In this document: positions 5,718-24,665 of the stretch, piece by piece
How the letters are laid out: every line of letters starts with the position of its first letter
Position numbering within the stretch: position 1 is the stretch's first letter
Virus record (IMG/VR): IMGVR_UViG_3300025849_000210
Location: 1 to 24,748 of that record
Length of the DNA stretch: 24,748 bases
Reading direction: 5' to 3' (one strand)
From: a virus
Notes under the pieces: model-generated
Seen by the model: the letters and a program-made list of their open reading frames with translations, nothing else
Told to the model about the DNA's origin: nothing
Databases searched by the model: none
Made by a program: the position numbers and the translations under genes

Positions 5718-5960
5718 CTACTTCCTTTGTTTGCGATCTAAAAGCGCCTCTGCCATAACGGCGGCGTCGAGGGTTGCTTCGATCTGGTCTAGCGCGCGCA
5801 TTATTGCGTGTGCCTCTTCGCGCACGTCCACTTCGGACGCACTACTGCCCGCAAAAATCGACATTTGATTTTCGCGTACACTCTGCATGAAAGTCTTGAA
5901 CGCGGTATCGTTTTTTAAACGGCGCGCTTCATCAGCTTCTATGCGGATTCCCGTACTCAT
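5718..5960 (-). CDS. Small helical protein between portal and scaffold
   Basis: The 80-residue product is almost entirely helical and charged (MSTGIRIEADEARRLKNDT then FKTFMQSVRENQMSIFAGSS), with a C-terminal helix REEAHAIMRALDQIEATLD. Short proteins of this kind commonly sit next to portal genes in phages; some have been proposed as assembly or packaging helpers, but I cannot name the family. It has no membrane segment or metal motif. The ATG overlaps the portal stop (ATGA), and the scaffold starts five bases after its stop, so the three genes are likely translated together. Confidence 0.8.
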   Translation of the reverse strand: MSTGIRIEADEARRLKNDTAFKTFMQSVRENQMSIFAGSSASEVDVREEAHAIMRALDQIEATLDAAVMAEALLDRKQRK

Positions 5961-8035
5961 TGTGGCTGCTGGCCTTGAGCCATTCCACCAATCATTCTCA
6001 TTTTATCTTGCTCCGCTTGTATCCTAGCAACGTCTACCGCAGTTCCGTATTCACCGTAAACCTTTGCGGCGTCTACCAGAAGATCTTGCGCCATTTGATC
6101 TCGCTTCAAATCGTCGCTGGCAGCAGCTTTTTGTGCGTCAAGTTGCAGCTTGGCCATGTCTGATTGCATCTTAGACTGAGCCTTCATTTGCTCTGCCTGC
6201 AAGAATGCAGCGTTTGGATCGGATGCTTGCCCCTGCTGGGCTTGCGCCTGCTGCTGCATTTGCAGCATTTGCGCCTCAATCTCTGGCGTTATTGGCGCAA
6301 AATATCTGTCAGCATTGCGTATGCCGGAAACACTTAATTGATCCGCCAATGTGTTTCTAATGTTTGTGAGTGAAACCAAACCATTCTGCGGGCCGTAGGT
6401 TTGGTACACCATCGTTTGCATTTGCAGGGCTTGGCCCAGCGCGGCAACCTTTTCCGCCTCGCGCCCAGTGCCAAGACCCACATTAATGGCAACGTCCATA
6501 GACTGATCCCAAACGCGTGGGTCAACGGGAACGAACATACCATTCATTCTCATCATCTTTTCTTCGTCTACGTTCTTGCTCATTAATCTCAACATTATTC
6601 CGAATAGGTCTTTAACCCCATCGGCAAGATTTCTCACCATAACCTCAACCTGACCCGCAGCAGCCTCTACAGTCGCCTGCACAGCAGCCTTGGTTGTTGA
6701 CTGCATGGCGTCAGGGTTTAGGGCTACGTTCTGCGTAACACCTGTTTTCTGGTCTACTACACTGTCTAAGTAAGTGAGCGCGCTCAGTGTCTGTCCGGCA
6801 ACAAATGGCACTGACAAGTCTTGCACTGCGCCAGCGGTACGCATTCTGACAATGGCGCCAATTTCATTATTTAGCACATCGTCTATGTTTACCGAATCAC
6901 TGATAATACCAATTCTTGGATTATTCGTCATTGCTACGTTATCTAAAATGCCACGCATTATCGAAGTAGCTGCGTCTTGGTCATCCATGATTAAATCAGC
7001 TAATGACTTGCCGTAAAAAGTGTGTGGCTCTGGGTCAATCTCCATTTTGGCAAACGGCAACTCATCACACTGCTCAAAATCAAGCATTTCGTAACCCGTA
7101 CCGCCGCATATTATTTTGTGTAAAACTGGTATGCCAGTTCCGTCCACATCTATGCGCATATAGGCTTCCGTAATTGTCACATTTTTCATTGACGGGTCTT
7201 GCTCGTCTTCGTCAAAATCATTGCTAAAACCTTGGCGCTCGTATGTTTCAGCCTCAGTCATTTCTGAGCCGCTATCAAAGCTATCAAGCTTTGTAACCAC
7301 TTCAGGGTCAAAGCCCATTTCGATTACATCTCCGGCGCGCATTTCTGTGCGGTGCGCCACCACGTAGGCGTCGGATAACATACGCGCGGATCTATCTATG
7401 AAAAACTCTTCCGGCGGTATGCTTTCAATTACTAACTCGCCGTCTTCCTCCTGCCGACTAAGCTTGACACTGTGGGATGGCATCTCAACTTCCATACCCA
7501 TTTCGTCCATTGATAGTGACATTTCCATCGTATGCTCAAGAATGGTAACGTCATCGTCAGACACCAGAAAAGTGTACTCGTCATCAGATAAATCTGTGTA
7601 GGTGTGAATTTCTGCGCGTGGCGTTGTCTTCCAATATGCTTTCACGATGCCTTGCTTTTTAATTAACGCGTCGTGGAAAGCGTCATTTAAAACGCGATAA
7701 CCATTTAGCCTAGCAAATTCATGCTGCATAAACTCAGTGGCTTGCTCCGCCATCGCTACGTCTTCTGCACCGTTTGGAACATACTCCACTGGCTTTGCGG
7801 AACTAAGGAAAATACGCATCAGGCTTGGCTTTACCGCACGTACGGTATCGCGTACCTTTGTAGATACAACCTTACTGCGGCCATTCTCGTAACCCAAATC
7901 AACTTCGCCGTCGTAGTAACGTTGAGACTTTATTCTGATTTCGCTTATCTCAGATTCCACAAAATCCACGGCAGATGATATGGCGTCCTGCACAATGCCC
8001 TCAACCTCAGTGCGTGATTTTGGCTTTAATTCCAT
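5957..8035 (-). CDS. Portal protein, P22/SU10-like
   Basis: The 692-residue product should form the dodecameric channel at one head vertex through which DNA is packaged and ejected. The length and N-terminal pattern fit P22/SU10-type portals: KSRTEVEGIVQDAI near the start, VRDTVRAVKPSLMRIFLSSA (61-80), VEYVPNGAEDVAMAEQAT (83-100), ALIKKQGIVKAYW, IPPEEFFIDRSA and an NNPRIG clip-like region. The C-terminal 100 residues are Gln/Ala-rich and helical (QMLQMQQQAQAQQGQ), as expected for the barrel domain. AGGA precedes the ATG by seven bases, and the gene follows the ejection-type protein by nine bases. It lies far from the terminase genes (about 15 kb), unlike the common ter-portal adjacency. Confidence 0.93.
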   Translation of the reverse strand: MELKPKSRTEVEGIVQDAISSAVDFVESEISEIRIKSQRYYDGEVDLGYENGRSKVVSTKVRDTVRAVKPSLMRIFLSSAKPVEYVPNGAEDVAMAEQATEFMQHEFARLNGYRVLNDAFHDALIKKQGIVKAYWKTTPRAEIHTYTDLSDDEYTFLVSDDDVTILEHTMEMSLSMDEMGMEVEMPSHSVKLSRQEEDGELVIESIPPEEFFIDRSARMLSDAYVVAHRTEMRAGDVIEMGFDPEVVTKLDSFDSGSEMTEAETYERQGFSNDFDEDEQDPSMKNVTITEAYMRIDVDGTGIPVLHKIICGGTGYEMLDFEQCDELPFAKMEIDPEPHTFYGKSLADLIMDDQDAATSIMRGILDNVAMTNNPRIGIISDSVNIDDVLNNEIGAIVRMRTAGAVQDLSVPFVAGQTLSALTYLDSVVDQKTGVTQNVALNPDAMQSTTKAAVQATVEAAAGQVEVMVRNLADGVKDLFGIMLRLMSKNVDEEKMMRMNGMFVPVDPRVWDQSMDVAINVGLGTGREAEKVAALGQALQMQTMVYQTYGPQNGLVSLTNIRNTLADQLSVSGIRNADRYFAPITPEIEAQMLQMQQQAQAQQGQASDPNAAFLQAEQMKAQSKMQSDMAKLQLDAQKAAASDDLKRDQMAQDLLVDAAKVYGEYGTAVDVARIQAEQDKMRMIGGMAQGQQPQ

Positions 8036-17125: not shown

Positions 17126-18523
17126 TTATCCGACCAAGATGCCATTAAAGTATGATTCTACACTTACGTCTGTTTGTGCAGTACCACCAGATTGATACAA
17201 AGTTATGGCCGCAGTGTCATCTGCGTCCATATCTGCAAGACAATTCATTGCAATAGGCCAATAGGCCAAATCTGCGTTAAACTGGTTAGATGAAAATAAT
17301 GACTGATATTCTTCATTAGACGTTTTTATTCGTGCAATATAATAAGCGGCTGCTGAATCTACGTTCTGCAATCTTAGATGAACGTGAAGGCTATATTTGC
17401 CTGTTACTGGAGCTGTAAAAGTGCTGCTAGCAAAATTACCACCTACGTCAAACCTTTCTGCACCGAAAGCTACATCTATTTCTTGACCAAGAGCTATGTT
17501 ATTTTGATTAGCAGAAGGAACCGCACTGAACGCTGGCTGTAATGGCTTGGTGACTGCACCTGTGCCGTCTATACGCAGATGTACTGTACTATTTGCATCA
17601 TCCGCAAACAGATACCCTGCTGTTCCACCTACATATCTGAGCCTGTTACTACTGTCGTGATAAATTGATGCAGCTGATGCATTCTGCATATCATTAGCGC
17701 TAATGGATAAACCAGAGTTAAATATGGCTTTACCTAAATCAGACATATCAAGTCTAAGCGCAGTTACATTGTTTCCACCATCAACACCTTTAAAACGAAT
17801 GTCTGCATTATTAGTTGGACATCTAATATCAAAGTTGCCATTAGAATTATCAGACAACTCACCAAAAGGTGTACCACCTTCTTTAAGAAGTATATCCCCA
17901 CCAGCAGCATCAAGAGTAATATCTCCTGCTGAGTCTAGTGTTAGGTCACCAGAACTCAAAGCCAGAGTAGTCCCATCAAGCGTGAAGTTATCTACAGTCA
18001 GCCCATCAGAAGTCACTGTGCCTGTTATGTCAATTCCAGTGGCCGTGGTGGCGAGTTTCTTAGCGTTACTGTAATAAAGTTCAGCGGCTCCGTTTTCTAT
18101 AAACTTTGCCATGTCATCATTATCTGCTTGAGATTTGATAACGATATTATTTCCTCTGATGTGAAGGTTAGATGAACCGCTTTCTTCAATAAATGACACG
18201 TTATTAGACCCATCATGGTAAATCTGTAGGTCAGACCCAGCGCCAAATATGGCTTTGTCGTTGTCAGCAAACGTCATATTACCTGTGGAAACAAAAGACG
18301 TACCCGTGATGGTCGTACCAGTTATTGCCGCCGCAGAGCTACCACCGATAACCGCGCCATCAATCGTGCCTGAGTTAATATCAATACCAGTAACCGCAGT
18401 GGTTCCGTCGAGAAGATTATCAATATTATCAAGGTTAGTGTTGATCTTAGTACCCCAAGTATCCTCAGATGCACCAACCTCCGGCTTAACTAAGCTATAT
18501 GTGGTTGTCGTTGTATCAGCCAT
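17126..18523 (-). CDS. Tail fibre with C1q-like receptor-binding tip
   Basis: The 465-residue product has an N-terminal anchor ([20 protein letters not shown], 11-30), a fibre shaft of short repetitive beta units ([33 protein letters not shown] at 96-108; a second IYHDSSNR at 287-294; [19 protein letters not shown]), and a C-terminal globular domain from about 328. The latter, with [20 protein letters not shown] (358-377), [12 protein letters not shown] and [12 protein letters not shown], fits the C1q/TNF jelly-roll pattern F---FTAPV-GKY-. The N-terminal LVKPEVG-S-DTWG-K-N-NLD motif marks phage fibres anchored to the tail. The tip probably binds the host surface. AGGAG lies six bases before the ATG. 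Confidence 0.9.
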
Positions 18524-18568: not shown

Positions 18569-19231
18569 TTAGGGGGAAGCAACAGACCAATCGGTTGATG
18601 CGTTGGATGCATATTGCCATACTTCACTCGCGGGATCAACATCAGTCCACGTTTCTGACGTTTCCAACTCTATTTCCCACTTCTCACGCGCGTTACACAC
18701 GACAGAAGAAGCAACAGAAATATTACTCGAACTAATCTGCACTAGGTTGCAAGTCGCGCCCACAGTCAAAGCAGTATCGATAACGGCGCCGCTGCTAAAC
18801 ACAACATTAGCATTGGATGCCGTAGACGCAGACGCAGCAATTACACTCGCGCCATCTCTCACGCGCTCAATAACCGCACTCGTAGATGCAACACCAGCTA
18901 TCGCACTGGCGCCACTTTGCACCCTAACGACACTCGCGGAAACAGACGCAGCGCCCGCAGAAGTTGCCGCGCTCTGCCTGACGCGCTGGCCGACAGAAGT
19001 TACCGACGCAGTAGACGCGGAAGTGGCTGCACCCTCACGAACACGTAGACCCGCAGCAGTCGTGCCGGAGGTTGTCGCAATTATAGAAGCCGTAAGCCTT
19101 ACGCGTACAGACGCAGCCGCCGTAGTGGTAGCCGTAATAATTGCGCCAGCGCCGTCAGTGACAAAACCATCAAGCCCAAAATTATATGAGCCGTATGTGC
19201 TTTGCCCGTATCCGCTGCGATACTCAGCCAT
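18569..19231 (-). CDS. Tail-region protein built from exact 20-residue repeats
   Basis: The 220-residue product starts MAEYRSGYGQSTYGSYNFGL, then carries repeats with a strict 20-residue period: RVR at 43-45, 63-65, 83-85 and 123-125 (RVQ at 103-105), each followed by a small-residue segment rich in Ala, Ser and Thr (for example EGAATSASTASVTSV). The C-terminal 45 residues are different, acidic and Trp-rich (REKWEIELETSETWTDVDPA). A regular 20-residue repeat suggests a beta-solenoid or repeated strand-turn shaft. Between a tail-fibre-family protein and the C1q-tipped fibre, it is probably part of the adhesion apparatus. I recall similar RVR-repeat proteins in marine phages, without an assigned function. 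The start overlaps the upstream stop (TAATG). Confidence 0.85.
   Translation of the reverse strand: MAEYRSGYGQSTYGSYNFGLDGFVTDGAGAIITATTTAAASVRVRLTASIIATTSGTTAAGLRVREGAATSASTASVTSVGQRVRQSAATSAGAASVSASVVRVQSGASAIAGVASTSAVIERVRDGASVIAASASTASNANVVFSSGAVIDTALTVGATCNLVQISSSNISVASSVVCNAREKWEIELETSETWTDVDPASEVWQYASNASTDWSVASP
18746..19165 (-). repeat. 60-bp-period coding repeat, seven 20-residue units
   Basis: Residues 23-162 of the 220-residue protein fall into seven 20-residue units, aligned by V at 24, 44, 64, 84, 104, 124 and 144 and by A at 28, 48, 68, 88, 108 and 128. DNA identity between units is limited, so the array is old and kept at the protein level. Confidence 0.75.
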
Positions 19232-19611
19232 TAGTCTAGCGTAATATCAAGATCACCTGATGGAAGCCTAAACACGTCACCAGTTGAAATAGTTTTGCTG
19301 GTTGTCAAAGCAGCGTATGCAATTAAATTTCCGCCGCTGGAAGCATCGAAGACCCCTACGTGCGAAACTGTGCCATAATTAGCAGTCGCAACATCCCACT
19401 CAATCGCCGCGTTGTTTGACGCAGTATTGCCGGAAATAGCAAACGCTACAGCCTGACGCCCGTAACCACCGCCGGAAACTTCCGTACCGCCGCCAGTGTC
19501 AGACGGAGCCGCAGTGTAAAGCGCGATATGCCAAGCAGTTGGCCGTGTCGCACTACCAGTAGTAAAAACCCAAGTTAATACTGTAGTTTCAAAAGTATTG
19601 GAAAAACTCAT
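19231..19611 (-). CDS. Phage tail-fibre-family structural protein (Gp80-like)
   Basis: The 126-residue product shows a pattern widespread in phages and usually annotated as tail fibre protein: MSFSNTFETTVLTWVF at the start, then WHIALYTAAPSDTGGGTEVS (28-47), GGGYGRQAVAF, IEWDVATANYGTVSHVGVFD, GNLIAYAALTTSKTISTGDV and a final strand RLPSGDLDITLD. Beta-rich, no enzyme motif. In related phages such proteins lie beside fibres or the neck; I infer a virion component of the tail or fibre attachment. The ATG starts one base after the adaptor stop, and its stop overlaps the repeat-protein ATG, so translation is likely coupled. Confidence 0.85.
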   Translation of the reverse strand: MSFSNTFETTVLTWVFTTGSATRPTAWHIALYTAAPSDTGGGTEVSGGGYGRQAVAFAISGNTASNNAAIEWDVATANYGTVSHVGVFDASSGGNLIAYAALTTSKTISTGDVFRLPSGDLDITLD

Positions 19612-19612
19612 T

Positions 19613-20233
19613 TTAATATGCCCTTATTTTCATACGACGGCCTGATCCGCCATATTTTGCTGCGTCACTTGAGGCGTTTATAGCATCAATTGCATTTTTA
19701 TACAAAGCCGCCCACGTTTGTATTCGTGCATCTTCCTTCAGGTATGGCGCAGAATGCATTAAGGCGCCATATAAATAAGCGTCTGGGAAATACTGCAACA
19801 GCCAATTTGATGTATTAGTATCACTCAATTCTGGGACGCGCGCGTAGTAATATAACTCAGCAGTGTATGTACTGTCGGGGACAGGATAAACTTCTATCTC
19901 GCCAGCAGTCAAAGCATAGTAGGCTGGCCGACCAGAGGTATTAGCCGTTTCAAACTTTCTCTGTAAAATTTCGGATTGGCTCATCTTCTCAAGCGGGCTG
20001 GTATCATTAGACGTAATGTAAAACCTAATGTCCTCAAGAAAATCAGCAGGGATTGCGCTATACTGCGTATCAATCTGAGCGTTGCTGCGCTTCTCCTGAC
20101 GCCAGTGCCGGACAAACCTTTGTATGTCAGCTTCGGCCAATGTAATAAAATCAGCAGCAATCGTACTTAGATCGTCACGGTTGAGAAAGTCAGCTATGCT
20201 CGACTTTAATTCTGCGTATGTTGTAATTGCCAT
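19613..20233 (-). CDS. Head-tail adaptor, SU10 / P22 gp4-like
   Basis: The 206-residue product should bind below the portal and connect it to the tail. It matches the SU10-type phage adaptor pattern: N-terminal TTYAELKSSIADFLNRDDLS, LAEADIQRFVRHWRQE (32-47), DFLEDIRFYITSND, GEIEVYPVPDSTYTAELYYY, SNWLLQYFPDAYLYGALMHS (141-160) and a helical end. Most phages keep this gene beside the portal; here it is about 12 kb away and opens the tail-fibre block. Its ATG faces the divergent plus-strand gene across 50 bases. The ribosome site (AAGGTT) is weak; the extended -10 candidate at 20275-20283 would give a leader of about 35 bases. Confidence 0.88.
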   Translation of the reverse strand: MAITTYAELKSSIADFLNRDDLSTIAADFITLAEADIQRFVRHWRQEKRSNAQIDTQYSAIPADFLEDIRFYITSNDTSPLEKMSQSEILQRKFETANTSGRPAYYALTAGEIEVYPVPDSTYTAELYYYARVPELSDTNTSNWLLQYFPDAYLYGALMHSAPYLKEDARIQTWAALYKNAIDAINASSDAAKYGGSGRRMKIRAY

Positions 20234-20283: not shown

Positions 20284-20430
20284 ATGATTGATGTAGATTT
20301 AGCTAGGGAACTAATTATTCTAAAAGCAAAAGACTTAGGCTTGGACGATGAAAAACTAGATAGCCTCGACGTATTGGTGTGCAGTCGGCTTGGCATTGAA
20401 GATCCAGATCCACTCATCTTTCCATCCTAG
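20284..20430 (+). CDS. Lone plus-strand 48-aa acidic protein, function unknown
   Basis: This is the only supported gene on the plus strand. The ATG at 20284 is preceded by GGGAGG with an eight-base spacer, one of the best ribosome sites in the window, and by a candidate promoter. The product, MIDVDLARELIILKAKDLGL then DDEKLDSLDVLVCSRLGIED and PDPLIFPS, is acidic and mainly helical, with no known motif. On the opposite strand this stretch has stops in all frames, so it is not a shadow of a minus gene. Its last 17 bases overlap the tail of the 743-aa gene in convergent orientation. It could be a small regulator or simply an uncharacterised accessory protein. Confidence 0.68.
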   Translation: MIDVDLARELIILKAKDLGLDDEKLDSLDVLVCSRLGIEDPDPLIFPS

Positions 20431-22645
20431 ATAGGTAACTTAAAATACCTTCAAGAACTTCTGGAGTTATTACTTGCGCAGGCATTTTTGTTTTTATTGC
20501 GTGAGTTTTATGTGCTTCGTTTAATGGCTGGCCAGATTTAGTTGCCTTGCCCGCCATTGATTTATAAACATCACTAAATAATAAACCCTGCGGCACGGGG
20601 GGAAGTGATCCAAGATAATCGCCAGTAATCTGCGTATTGTATGTAGAATGAGGAAAACTTTGTGGGGGCATATTCCCCCGTGGTTTTTGAAATAAAACTG
20701 GATTTAAATCACCTATTCTTGCGGCGCCTAAACCGAACATACCAGCCGGCATATCTCTTTGAGTAGGATCGGTAACACTATACCTAGCCTGCCCCGAACT
20801 TGGAAAGCCCAACTCTTGATACGGTTTAGTATCTATTAAACGAATAAAAGATTTTCTCTTAGGAGATGTGGTGCTTTCAGCCCACTTTCGTAAATCCGGC
20901 GATAAAATACCAACAAAGTCAGGGTCAAAACCCTTCATTTCTTTATCAAAACTTTTTGCAGCTTTTTTTGTAATTTTGGAGCCTTTGACTAATTCAGCCA
21001 TAGCCGCGCCCGTCATCGTAGCGAAATCATTTGCGTTTGGAGACATACTCCCCGTTACACCTAAAATATCTTTACCTTGAAATTTTTCTCTTGCTTTGGC
21101 AGCTTCTTTATCAATTCTGGTTATAATGTTTTGGTTAGATGCCCAGACTGCATTGTCTGCTTGCGCCGCTGGGCCAAGCATAAAATCAAAGCCGCCTTCG
21201 GTGTAAACTGGCTGGTCAAACTTTACATCATCGACACCCTCAACTAATAAGCCGCGAGAAGTTCTGTCGCCGTAAAAAGGTAAAACAACTTTACCTTCAG
21301 TTTCCTCCCAAGACATAGGCCTGCGCGCTAAGTTCTCTCCGGTATCAGTTAGGGCAACGTCAGTGTTACCCAAGTAATCCCGCATCTTTGTATTCTGATA
21401 ACCCAGCGGATCAAGATCTGCTTTATTAGCAGAAGAGGCCGCCAGCAAGCCGCCAAGCTTTGATCTATTGGCAGCAGAAATATTAGATAAATTAGAAAAC
21501 TCTGGGTCAAAACGGGCATATTGGGATCGAATATCTGCTGGATTATAATTAACTCTAACCCTGTTACCTAAAGCTTCGGCGCTTTCTAAACCGCTAAACC
21601 CAGACTTTTCCATTATCTCAGTAACGTTATTTTTACCAAAAACATTTTTTAATTTTTGAATAGTAACCATTGCTGGCTGGTAGCTATCTAAGTAAACACT
21701 TAAATTAGGATCAGACTTACTTTTAATAAATACCTGATCTCCGTTTCCACGGTACTCAACATTAAAATCTGGCCCCTCAAAAGCTTGGCCAATAGACCTA
21801 TTACTATTTATTCCCATTGGTTCATCTAAATTAAGAATATTATTATTCCGCGACATAATAGGAAGAACGTTGCCACCTTCAGCAAAAATCCTTTCACCCG
21901 CAATTTGAGATTGTTCCCAATCTTTTGGGACGTATGTTTCAGCCCTTTTAGGATTAGTTGTAGTATAAAAACCTTTGCCTAATTGATTTTGCTTACTGCC
22001 AAATTTTTCTTTATCAATTGCAGAGATATTAGCACCAGTGCCATGCATAGATCTTTGATCAAACCCAGCAGCATCAGCCCTAGCCATTCGTGCAGCTTGG
22101 CTCATATCAAGTGGCGTATTGGCAAACATATATTGATTGTCAGCCGCACCCATCATCTCATTCGTAACTTCGTTTGATCTACCAGCAGCGCGTAACTCTA
22201 GGATTTGCCTCGCCATAGCCTCAGACGCATTTGACGCCGGAGGTAAATCAGACTGAGTGCGAGACACGCCGGAACGTAAAGAATTTTTTGGTGTAGTGGC
22301 CAAACCACCGCCGCCCATTGCTAAAGCAGCAGCACCCATAACCTCCGGCACTAAATCGGCCTCTGGTATCAAACCTTGATACGCAGAATATGGCAAGTCA
22401 ATTGGCTTACCAATTGCGGAAAGCAATCCAACCAAGGCTGGCCCAATACCCTCCCATTCACGCGTAGAAACTCCCTCACTTCCAATTTCCTTAGACAGTA
22501 AACCGCCAAGAATAGGACGCCTGCCCTCACGCCATAAATCGTAAGCATCTTCACGCGCCATATCATACAGAAAAGAAAACGGGCTTGCCTGCTCTCTGTA
22601 GTAACGCGTTTCGGCTGGATCTGTTGAATATAAAACGGGCGCCAT
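20414..22645 (-). CDS. Large protein with ADP-ribosyltransferase-like domain (polyvalent-type)
   Basis: The 743-residue product has an N-terminal virion-like part (1-130, with the hydrophobic Gly/Ala segment VMGAAALAMGGGGLA), then a region typical of phage-borne ADP-ribosyltransferase domains: LDMSQAARMARADAAGFDQR (179-198), HGTG (201-204), LGKGFYTTTNPKRAETYV (222-239) and DIRSQYARFDPEF (371-383). H201 and Y227 would be the NAD-binding His and Tyr of an H-Y-E-type fold; the last catalytic residue is not certain. The C-terminal 340 residues (GLLVEGVDDVKF, YTEGGFDFMLGPAA, KFQGKDILGVTG) look like a further polyvalent-protein domain that I cannot name. If ejected with the DNA it could modify a host protein or nucleic acid on entry; that is inference. 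A non-enzymatic virion role is possible. Confidence 0.72.
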   Translation of the reverse strand: MAPVLYSTDPAETRYYREQASPFSFLYDMAREDAYDLWREGRRPILGGLLSKEIGSEGVSTREWEGIGPALVGLLSAIGKPIDLPYSAYQGLIPEADLVPEVMGAAALAMGGGGLATTPKNSLRSGVSRTQSDLPPASNASEAMARQILELRAAGRSNEVTNEMMGAADNQYMFANTPLDMSQAARMARADAAGFDQRSMHGTGANISAIDKEKFGSKQNQLGKGFYTTTNPKRAETYVPKDWEQSQIAGERIFAEGGNVLPIMSRNNNILNLDEPMGINSNRSIGQAFEGPDFNVEYRGNGDQVFIKSKSDPNLSVYLDSYQPAMVTIQKLKNVFGKNNVTEIMEKSGFSGLESAEALGNRVRVNYNPADIRSQYARFDPEFSNLSNISAANRSKLGGLLAASSANKADLDPLGYQNTKMRDYLGNTDVALTDTGENLARRPMSWEETEGKVVLPFYGDRTSRGLLVEGVDDVKFDQPVYTEGGFDFMLGPAAQADNAVWASNQNIITRIDKEAAKAREKFQGKDILGVTGSMSPNANDFATMTGAAMAELVKGSKITKKAAKSFDKEMKGFDPDFVGILSPDLRKWAESTTSPKRKSFIRLIDTKPYQELGFPSSGQARYSVTDPTQRDMPAGMFGLGAARIGDLNPVLFQKPRGNMPPQSFPHSTYNTQITGDYLGSLPPVPQGLLFSDVYKSMAGKATKSGQPLNEAHKTHAIKTKMPAQVITPEVLEGILSYLSRMER

Positions 22646-22771: not shown

Positions 22772-24172
22772 TTAGGCAATGCCACGTAGGTTTCTTTTAA
22801 TAGACTGTTTCCAACTCGATATTGCACCGGAAAGAGCCGTCGTTGCATCCGACGCCATAGTCAAACACAAAGCATCAGCCAAGTCAGGAGATTTCAATCC
22901 ACGCCTGCGCATCTCATCCTTACTCTCAGCCTTCATCTTACCAGAAGAAGTAAACGAATACCGTATGGCAGTCAATTCAGCCACAAGCTGATCACTGTCC
23001 GGCAACTTACAAGATCTATCCTCCAACCAACCCTTCGTCTTAAACCAAAGCTCAGACCTCAAATTCATATACGTGTCACCCATAGACGGAGACTCACTAA
23101 CATTCACGCCCCTCACGGGCGCACCCAACTCACGCAGGCGATCGACAACCCCGCCACCAAGGCCAATACTATCAACTAAAATTTCCTTCGGCTGCGCGCT
23201 GGGCGGCAAACCATTATACTCAGCCATGACGCGGCCAACAGTCTGCATCAAATCCAACCCCTGCCACGAATTAATATCCGTCACCACATTCCCATACCGC
23301 TTGCACAACGCAGTTTGATCGGTGCCAAACCGTGCAACGTCCAAACCCCAGATGGGCTTCTCATCCGGCGTCACCTCAATATCACGCCGTATCGCACTCT
23401 CAACCAAATGAAACGGAATAATAGTATCATCATCGGCCAGCGGAAATTCACCCAAAACACGCACACGAAATGCGTTGGAATCCTCACCATAACGCGCGCG
23501 CATCTCATCAACAAAATCATCAGATACGAGGGGGCTTTCCACGCAAGACCAACGCCGCGTCCACCAACTATTCGCCATGCGCGTCTGGCTCTCGTAAAAC
23601 GTACCACTAGAACGCGTCGGATTAGACAGTAGGATCGTCGTGGCGGAGTGACCCGACATAGAACCCGCAGCAGCCTCAAAAACCTTCTCAGGCACACCGG
23701 AAGCCTCGTCAACAACTAACAAAACATTCTCAGAATGCACACCAGCCAAAGCCTCCGGCGTTTCCGCCCTACTCGTCCTAGCCGAAATAAACGCCTCACT
23801 GGGAGCCGAAGACAACTCAATGCGATCAGACTTAACAACCAACATAGAACCCAACTGCTCCGGCAACTCATTAATCCAACGCTTTAACTCCGCAAAAAGT
23901 GCGTCAAACAACTGACCACTCGTCGGCGCCGTAACCACAACCTTATTCGGAAAACGCAACATCAAAAACCAAAGCATAGCCCAACTTGCAGACGTAGACT
24001 TACCCGTACCGTGGCCGGAACGCACACTAATCTTACGCTCGTTATTCGCAATGGCATTCAAAAACTCCGCCTGATACGGCAGAGGATCTGCACCCAAAAC
24101 CTCCTTAACAAATAAAACAGGATCGTCACGGTAGCGCGACACAAACTCAATAAAAGGATTATCTTCACTCAC
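22772..24172 (-). CDS. terL: Terminase large subunit
   Basis: The 466-residue motor pumps DNA into the head and cuts it. ATPase signatures: Walker A RSGHGTGKS (51-59), Walker B VLLVVDEASG (150-159) with the catalytic Glu156, and coupling motif ILLSNPTR (180-187). Nuclease acidic residues: D278 in GLDVARFGTD, D334 in ILVDSIGLGGG, and D430/D433 in SPDLADALCL. I place the start at a GTG at 24172, seven bases after GAGGAG, giving MSEDNPFIEFVSRY; a longer frame from 24271 would add a basic, Arg-rich 33-residue leader that is the terS gene in another frame. It overlaps the terS end by eight bases. Confidence 0.93.
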   Translation of the reverse strand: MSEDNPFIEFVSRYRDDPVLFVKEVLGADPLPYQAEFLNAIANNERKISVRSGHGTGKSTSASWAMLWFLMLRFPNKVVVTAPTSGQLFDALFAELKRWINELPEQLGSMLVVKSDRIELSSAPSEAFISARTSRAETPEALAGVHSENVLLVVDEASGVPEKVFEAAAGSMSGHSATTILLSNPTRSSGTFYESQTRMANSWWTRRWSCVESPLVSDDFVDEMRARYGEDSNAFRVRVLGEFPLADDDTIIPFHLVESAIRRDIEVTPDEKPIWGLDVARFGTDQTALCKRYGNVVTDINSWQGLDLMQTVGRVMAEYNGLPPSAQPKEILVDSIGLGGGVVDRLRELGAPVRGVNVSESPSMGDTYMNLRSELWFKTKGWLEDRSCKLPDSDQLVAELTAIRYSFTSSGKMKAESKDEMRRRGLKSPDLADALCLTMASDATTALSGAISSWKQSIKRNLRGIA

Positions 24173-24665
24173 TGGACAACTCCTCATACTCAACATCAAT
24201 CGCATTGGCCTCGCGCTGCTTATCCTCCGCATCAATCGCGGCAATCTCAGAGTTAACCTTGCGCAGCGCATCTAAATGCATATCAGCTACAGAAATCGTC
24301 ACATTAGTCTGCGGGCGATTGCCATACCTATCCTGATTGTAAGAACCCGCCATGAACTTACGCCACTGCACCTTCTCACGCGTGGCGGCAATCTCCGACG
24401 TTGTGCTACTGCCATCCAACGCGTCAACCATTCCCAACCCCTCCTCAACCAACGCGTCGGCAGACTCACGCTTCGCCTTGGCCAGCGCAGAAGCATACTC
24501 AGGAATCTGATTAACAGACGTGCTAAAATACGCGCGACTGCACCCATACTCCTCCGCAAGCTTTGTCATCGTCTTGCCAGAAGCAACCTCCTCAAACAAA
24601 AAATCTGCGCCGCCCTTACTCTTAATCTCACCTAAAATCCTGCGCCGTAAAGCCCTGCCTGCCAT
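24165..24665 (-). CDS. terS: Terminase small subunit
   Basis: The 166-residue product recognises the packaging site and loads the large subunit. An N-terminal helix-turn-helix is suggested by FLFEEVASGKTMTKLAEEYG and CSRAYFSTSVNQIPEYA, followed by a long helical oligomerisation region (ALAKAKRESADALVEEGLGM, and AATREKVQWRKFMAGSYNQD) and a C-terminal acidic tail that would contact the large subunit. The order fits Sf6-like small terminases. GGAG lies eight bases before the ATG. It is directly followed, with an eight-base overlap, by terL. It is the rightmost gene in the window. Confidence 0.88.
   Translation of the reverse strand: MAGRALRRRILGEIKSKGGADFLFEEVASGKTMTKLAEEYGCSRAYFSTSVNQIPEYASALAKAKRESADALVEEGLGMVDALDGSSTTSEIAATREKVQWRKFMAGSYNQDRYGNRPQTNVTISVADMHLDALRKVNSEIAAIDAEDKQREANAIDVEYEELSSE

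What the first reader, a model, noticed from the sequence alone, without database searches (positions are those of the whole stretch)
21497..22120. ADP-ribosyltransferase-like domain in a large phage protein between terL and the adaptor
Residues about 176-383 of the 743-aa protein show an HGTG, GKGFYTTTNP--A--YV and IRSQYARFDP succession. This is characteristic of phage and MuF/polyvalent-type ADP-ribosyltransferases. It is embedded between virion-like N-terminal and unknown C-terminal domains and sits in the late operon. That suggests a virion-borne effector delivered with the genome, similar in logic to T4 Alt but unlike it in sequence. Target and activity are unknown.
Basis: partly seen in the sequence, partly recalled or inferred. 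Interest (0 to 1): 0.6.

Follow-up and report, generated by a model that had tools for sequence, protein, structure and literature searches.

The report
Swappable ADP-ribosyltransferase cassette in phage protein
A marine podophage carries, between its DNA-packaging gene and its tail-adaptor gene, a multi-domain protein whose middle third is an ADP-ribosyltransferase-fold enzyme that near-identical phages have replaced as a neat cassette, so it is probably a host-modifying effector under arms-race selection, though no experiment here shows that it is injected or active.

Summary
Window 20414-22645 (- strand) encodes 743 aa between TerL and an SU10-type adaptor, with the HGT, GFYTT and RSQYARFDP motifs at the stated places. 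A 37-sequence AlphaFold2 model of residues 138-403 (pLDDT 84) has the ADP-ribosyltransferase (ART) fold: best solved match the cyanophage A4 pre-ejectosome protein (Z 9.4), then tankyrase, exotoxin A, cholix and PARPs. H201, Y227 and a third acidic candidate, E357, are invariant across the window's subfamily; dN/dS is 0.05-0.2 in close pairs.

A phage about 92% identical in the rest of this gene, and similarly alike in TerS, TerL and adaptor, carries an unrelated-looking ART core with sharp edges. Across 39 distinct TerL-slot-adaptor loci, pairs with TerL and adaptor >=95% identical have a median slot-protein identity of only 0.29. The slot holds 0, 1 or 2 ART modules, PBECR5 RNase, GNAT-like or unclassified domains. 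RSQYARFDP is the cassette's conserved 3' joint, not a catalytic motif.

Best reading: a virion-delivered ART effector of the polyvalent-protein kind. Injection and target remain inferred. The C-terminal module matches no family; its predicted fold resembles YTH m6A readers (inconclusive).

The parts
20414..22645 (-). Slot gene, 743 aa: N module - joint - ART core - joint - C module
   Evidence: architecture from relatives
22256..22645 (-). N module, aa 1-130 (GRRPxxGGLLSKE ... GLAMGGG ... LRSG); recurs with or without ART and C modules; no known family
   Evidence: no Pfam or PHROG match there
22073..22225 (-). 5' joint (pre-motif), aa 141-191, GRSNEVTNEMM...NTPLDMSQAARMARA; conserved in front of unlike ART cores
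   Evidence: Alignment A2; high identity ends at aa 192 in the window/L003 comparison
21533..22072 (-). ART core, aa 192-371; exchanged cassette
   Evidence: AF2 model, Foldseek and VIA-align; maximum-likelihood breakpoints at window 21532/22071, identity 0.365 inside against 0.924 outside
22043..22045 (-). H201 codon, strand beta1, candidate NAD-binding histidine
   Evidence: Invariant in all rows; in strand 58-66 of the model
21965..21967 (-). Y227 codon (GFY), strand beta2
   Evidence: Invariant; in strand 89-92 of the model
21575..21577 (-). E357 codon, candidate third (acidic) residue at the end of the strand before the last hairpin
   Evidence: Invariant; in other slot ARTs an E or D near the same place (alignment A2)
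21437..21532 (-). 3' joint (post-motif), aa 372-403, RSQYARFDPEFSNLSNISAANRSKLGGLLAA
   Evidence: Invariant or nearly invariant R, S, A, R, F, D, P columns across 37 diverse modules; identity resumes here
20417..21436 (-). C module, aa 404-743; conserved phage domain with no Pfam, PHROG or NCBIfam family; predicted fold partly YTH-like
22772..24271 (-). TerL, upstream border of the slot
   Evidence: phrog_2 E 6e-44
19613..20233 (-). SU10-type adaptor, downstream border of the slot
   Evidence: PF24175 E 3.5e-36
5957..8035 (-). SU10-type portal (identifies the phage lineage)
   Evidence: PF23899 E 4e-183

Best explanation
The gene is a modular effector protein of an SU10/phiEco32-lineage podophage, most likely of Rhodobacterales. 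It is made late with the packaging and tail genes, probably packaged in the head, and ejected with the DNA. Inside the host its middle domain, an H-Y-E type ADP-ribosyltransferase, would bind NAD+ (H201, Y227) and transfer ADP-ribose, with E357 the likeliest catalytic acid, to a host target in the first minutes of infection, to redirect host machinery or blunt a defence. Because target and counter-measure evolve, phages replace just the ART core between two conserved joints while keeping the N and C modules that would handle packaging, delivery or nucleic-acid contact. Shown here: ART fold of the model, invariance of H/Y/E, purifying selection, the cassette exchange and the hypervariable slot. 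Inferred: late expression, packaging, injection, catalysis, target.
For: ART fold: AF2 pLDDT 83.8, pTM 0.75; Foldseek PDB top 9k3a_B, cyanophage A4 pre-ejectosome, E 1.3e-4; VIA-align Z 9.4 to it, then tankyrase 7.9, exotoxin A 7.4, cholix 7.2, PARPs about 7; BFVD many 'ART-PolyVal-like' phage proteins, E down to 2e-9. Catalysis: H201, Y227, E357 invariant; dN/dS 0.05-0.2 in close pairs of the same core. Cassette: breakpoints aa 192/371, identity 0.365 inside against 0.924 outside, log-likelihood gain 342; flanking TerS, TerL and adaptor equally alike. Slot hypervariability: 41 pairs with TerL and adaptor >=95% aa, slot median 0.29, next gene g19231 median 0.97. Effector company: PBECR5 E 2e-21, GNAT-like, tandem ARTs. 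Delivery by analogy: a solved ejectosome protein carries a similar fold, and about 44% of phage ARTs lie in head-packaging contexts (PMC9503650).
Against: No virion proteomics. The nearest cultured relative with the ART module in the same slot (Octadecabacter Antarctic DB virus 2 gp6) is annotated only as hypothetical, and a term search of its paper for mass spectrometry found none. The third catalytic residue is not at the position used by the E-type relatives (V363 is there in the window protein), so E357 is an inference. The model rests on 37 sequences and I had no coordinates to measure the active site. The window protein is below every curated family cut-off. SU10's known ejection proteins are encoded elsewhere (gp20-24; PMC9509320).
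Confidence: 0.66

Rival explanations
1. ART fold, but made late and acting inside the producing cell (like T4 ModA/ModB, or superinfection exclusion, or late host shut-off), not packaged or injected.
For: Only the gene position suggests packaging; SU10 ejection proteins are encoded elsewhere; in some relatives the ART is a small separate gene (L044-L049, about 285 aa; L122/L198/L202).
Against: Fusion to large conserved modules and a recurring place between TerL and adaptor or portal in most relatives; a comparable fold in a solved ejectosome.
Confidence: 0.2
2. Catalytically dead ART fold kept as a binding or structural domain.
For: The acid is absent from the place used by the E-type relatives; several other cores in the slot replace Y by F/W or H by R/S.
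Against: H201, Y227 and E357 are all invariant across the window's subfamily, with strong purifying selection.
Confidence: 0.13
3. NADase or NAD-derived signal antagonist (counter-defence against NAD-depleting or cyclic-ADPR systems), not a macromolecule modifier.
For: ART superfamily members include NADases (PMC9503650); rapid cassette exchange fits an arms race with defence.
Against: Structural neighbours are protein-modifying ARTs, but a fold does not decide the acceptor.
Confidence: 0.18
4. The cassette exchange is an artefact of metagenome assembly.
For: All window-like loci are metagenomic contigs.
Against: Both alleles recur in independent samples: window type in 3300009497 and 3300025626, L003 type in 3300006737, 3300006921 and 3300006928, reading frame intact; slot divergence repeats in other TerL/adaptor clades.
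Confidence: 0.03

Closest known systems
Polyvalent proteins with ART (ART-PolyVal PF18760; Tox-ART-HYD2 clade; Iyer et al. 2017, PMC5512222)
   Same: Phage multi-domain proteins with ART of H-Y type, sometimes several ARTs per protein, beside PBECR RNase domains; proposed to be injected early. A relative in the slot family matches PF18760 above its cut-off (L156, 43.3 bits).
   Different: Window ART is below the cut-off; its third residue is probably E in a longer hairpin, not the D of the HYD clade; fixed TerL-adaptor slot with precise core exchange; C module not found in the libraries searched.
Cyanophage A4 pre-ejectosome protein (PDB 9k3a chain B, residues 1418-1600)
   Same: Best structural match of the ART module (Z 9.4), in a virion-internal protein.
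   Different: About 10% identity; a different, much larger protein; I could not read its paper.
T4 Alt
   Same: Logic: ART carried in the head and injected to modify the host early (PMC5512222).
   Different: Alt belongs to the R-S-E clade; here H-Y-E; packaging not shown here.
DUF3990 (PF13151)
   Same: GxGFYTT strand-2 motif; sub-threshold match E 0.0036.
   Different: Only about 42 residues match; below cut-off.
P1 Dar proteins
   Same: Multi-component internal head proteins co-ejected against restriction (PMC12810830).
   Different: No sequence relation seen in the searches made.

Membership tests
ART superfamily (PARP/exotoxin A-like, H-Y-E) | ART fold with NAD cleft | tested here: met
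   AF2 model with Z 9.4 to 9k3a_B and 7-8 to tankyrase, exotoxin A, cholix, PARPs; nearly all of 50 rows are ARTs. Cleft geometry itself not measured.
ART superfamily (PARP/exotoxin A-like, H-Y-E) | His in strand 1 and Tyr in strand 2 | tested here: met
   H201 and Y227 invariant, in strands 58-66 and 89-92 of the model
ART superfamily (PARP/exotoxin A-like, H-Y-E) | Acidic third catalytic residue in the cleft | tested here: inconclusive
   E357 invariant but one hairpin earlier than in the E-type relatives; no coordinates to measure
ART superfamily (PARP/exotoxin A-like, H-Y-E) | NAD+ cleavage or transfer | not testable with these tools
   Needs a biochemical assay
ART-PolyVal (PF18760) | Score over the curated cut-off (31.2 bits) | tested here: not met
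   18.9 bits for the window module; L156 in the slot family scores 43.3
ART-PolyVal (PF18760) | H-Y-D active site with D in strand 5 (PMC5512222) | tested here: inconclusive
   H and Y present; the D of the FxNxxDxG relatives is absent, E357 nearby
Polyvalent proteins (architecture class) | Several disparate domains in one phage polypeptide | tested here: met
   N, ART and C modules; slot relatives with two ARTs, PBECR5, GNAT-like
Polyvalent proteins (architecture class) | Encoded among packaging or morphogenesis genes | tested here: met
   Between TerL and adaptor
Polyvalent proteins (architecture class) | Packaged and injected | not testable with these tools
   Needs virion proteomics
MuF-ART fusion | MuF domain | tested here: not met
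   No MuF match at E<=1
T4 Alt family | R-S-E active site | tested here: not met
   Invariant HGT and GFY at strands 1 and 2
YTH/EVE modified-base readers (C module) | YTH fold | tested here: inconclusive
   Top 50 rows all YTH, best Z 7.7, below the tool's caution line of 8
YTH/EVE modified-base readers (C module) | Sequence profile similarity to EVE | tested here: inconclusive
   hhalign against 18 EVE sequences: probability 0.4%; one member hit EVE at E 0.015 but in a helical insert; YTH sequences themselves not compared

The most novel reading that the evidence does not exclude
The TerL-adaptor interval of these marine podophages is a dedicated effector-exchange slot: phages with otherwise near-identical packaging and tail genes swap only the catalytic core of an injected ADP-ribosyltransferase between two conserved joints, as polymorphic toxins swap their tips, and couple it to a conserved C module with a YTH-like fold that may read methylated nucleic acid.
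Probability: 0.3. Interest if true: 0.75.

Novelty: new variant of a known kind. Interest (0 to 1): 0.57.

Why it matters
Head-borne ARTs are proposed to be common in phages but few have known targets. A natural allelic series, the same phage backbone with different ART cores, and related phages with a no-ART version of the gene (N-C, 460 aa), is what is needed to ask what an injected ART does and which host pressure drives its turnover. It also gives a search rule: look between terL and the adaptor for candidate injected effectors.

Tried and rejected
Sequence search of PDB with the protein and with both profiles: nothing convincing. PHROGs and NCBIfam for the C module: nothing; Pfam only scattered weak hits. 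EVE match of one C-module member rejected as chance: it lies in a helical insert and hhalign gave 0.4%; a first EVE alignment picked a neighbouring gene by mistake. ART-PolyVal in 61 genomes of the host-like MAG's order: no match, but the controls did not ring either, so uninformative. The subfamily profile in 101 genomes of that order and in the GTDB contigs found only one MAG contig, which carries a phage portal gene, so the module is not a common prophage or host gene there. No open paper found for 9k3a. PhiGT1 paper: no ADP-ribosyl or polyvalent term in the main text. Profile comparison of the three ART core types gave over 99% probability, but part of that alignment is the shared 5' joint, so it is only weak evidence that the cores themselves are related.

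Full report
WHAT WAS CHECKED. The gene is 20414..22645 on the minus strand, 743 aa. It lies between TerL (22772-24271) and an SU10-type adaptor (19613-20233); the portal further on is SU10-type (PF23899 E 4e-183) and TerS is Sf6-like. The record is a 24,748-base virus contig. The closest cultured phage by portal and adaptor is Octadecabacter Antarctic DB virus 2 (47% and 57% identity).

ART OR NOT. Single-sequence profiles give only sub-threshold matches to ART-PolyVal (E 0.014) and DUF3990 (E 0.015). Diverse modules found in viral contigs raise this: 14 of 37 members match ART-PolyVal at E<=0.01, best 2.6e-8, and a slot-family relative, L156, scores 43.3 bits, over the 31.2 cut-off. The AF2 model of residues 138-403 (pLDDT 83.8, pTM 0.75) has as best solved match 9k3a_B, the cyanophage A4 pre-ejectosome (Foldseek E 1.3e-4; VIA-align Z 9.4, 152 residues, rmsd 4.4), followed by tankyrase 2, exotoxin A, cholix toxin and PARPs at Z 7-8. 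The rows below 9.4 are individually under the tool's caution line of 8, but nearly all are ARTs. In viral predicted structures 48 matches have E<=1e-3, many named ART-PolyVal-like.

ACTIVE SITE. In the window's own subfamily (the window sequence and 20 to 21 distinct relatives, mostly about 37-57% identical in the core) H201, Y227 and E357 are invariant, with G216, R234, Y238 and D320 also invariant. In the slot, three kinds of ART end occur: a D type (FxNxxDxG, fitting the H-Y-D clade described in PMC5512222), an E type (GEYTIFDP, which from my own knowledge resembles the PARP strand around the catalytic Glu), and the window's type, where that position is V363 and an invariant E lies one hairpin earlier. 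E357 as catalytic acid is therefore an inference. dN/dS is 0.05-0.2 between close pairs of this core, so the core is maintained.

THE CASSETTE. L002 (window allele) and L003 (from another sample) are about 94% identical in nucleotides in TerS, TerL and adaptor, and 92.4% in the gene outside the core. Within the gene, identity falls to 36.5% between aa 192 and 371, with a log-likelihood gain of 342 for these two breakpoints. The edges coincide with two joints conserved across otherwise unlike cores: GRSNEVTNEMM...NTPLDMSQAARMARA before, RSQYARFDPEFSNLSNISAAN after. Each core has its nearest relatives in other backbones: the window core at 57% in L043, L111, L112, the L003 core at 62-66% in L155, L163, L166-L168. 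Each allele is seen in more than one sample (two for the window type, three for L003), which argues against assembly error.

THE SLOT. Among 188 distinct proteins carrying an ART or C module there are about 50 module orders: N-C without ART, X-ART, ART-ART, N-ART-C, ART alone, C alone, and neighbouring separate C and ART genes. Of 39 distinct TerL-slot-adaptor loci, 41 pairs have TerL and adaptor at >=95% aa; their slot proteins have median global identity 0.29 (21 pairs under 0.3), while the next downstream genes have medians 0.97 and 0.95. The pairs fall in nine clades and 11 loci of one clade dominate them, so they are not independent; loci were collected by ART or C matches, so slots without either module are missed. 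Other slot content: PBECR5 (E 2e-21, L145) and a weak GNAT match (L097).

THE C MODULE. Residues 404-743 form a conserved unit found with and without ART, also in CRP-902, C72C1 and two Manatee Spring phages. No PHROG or NCBIfam family matches, and Pfam gives only scattered weak hits. The model is confident (pLDDT 91.7, pTM 0.88). All 50 VIA-align rows are YTH domains (best Z 7.7), but this is below the line at which the tool advises trust, and EVE profiles show no sequence relation. I report it as a lead.

MECHANISM. Shown: ART fold of the model, conserved H/Y/E, purifying selection, exchange of the core, slot hypervariability. Inferred: late expression with virion genes, packaging, ejection, ADP-ribosylation, target. 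The literature supports the logic: polyvalent proteins and head-context ARTs (PMC5512222, PMC9503650). Injection is the weakest link: SU10 virions release gp20-24, encoded elsewhere (PMC9509320), and no proteome of a slot-bearing phage was found.

VERDICT. A real ART-fold domain, a new variant of the polyvalent-effector kind. The part of most interest is not that an ART is there, which is common in phages, but that its core is exchanged as a cassette within a fixed slot.

Noticed in passing
window 20417-21436 (C module): Conserved phage module without a family in the libraries searched; predicted fold partly YTH-like, with a nearly invariant W (W501) in a WASN motif. May be a modified-base reader; inconclusive.
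   Followed up: partly
L145:1673-4111: Slot protein of a relative carries a PBECR5 RNase-like domain (E 2e-21) plus an ART module.
   Followed up: partly
L043, L054, L055, L108, L114, L125: Slot proteins with two ART matches; in L043 an E-type core is followed by a window-type core.
   Followed up: partly
L012:5457-6073: The adaptor gene appears split into two ORFs (82 and 80 aa), possibly a frameshift, an insertion or an assembly error.
   Followed up: no
L129, L185 downstream of the adaptor: The small gene after the adaptor (window 19231-19611) is repeated two- to three-fold in tandem.
   Followed up: no
window 17126-18523: Tail-fibre-like gene with a weak C1q-type C-terminal match (PF00386 E 0.0055); variable among relatives.
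   Followed up: no
L170 (Rhodobacterales MAG contig): The only genome-collection hit: a phage-like contig with portal, ART slot gene (567 aa) and adaptor; its N part holds a second ART-like or RES-like stretch.
   Followed up: no
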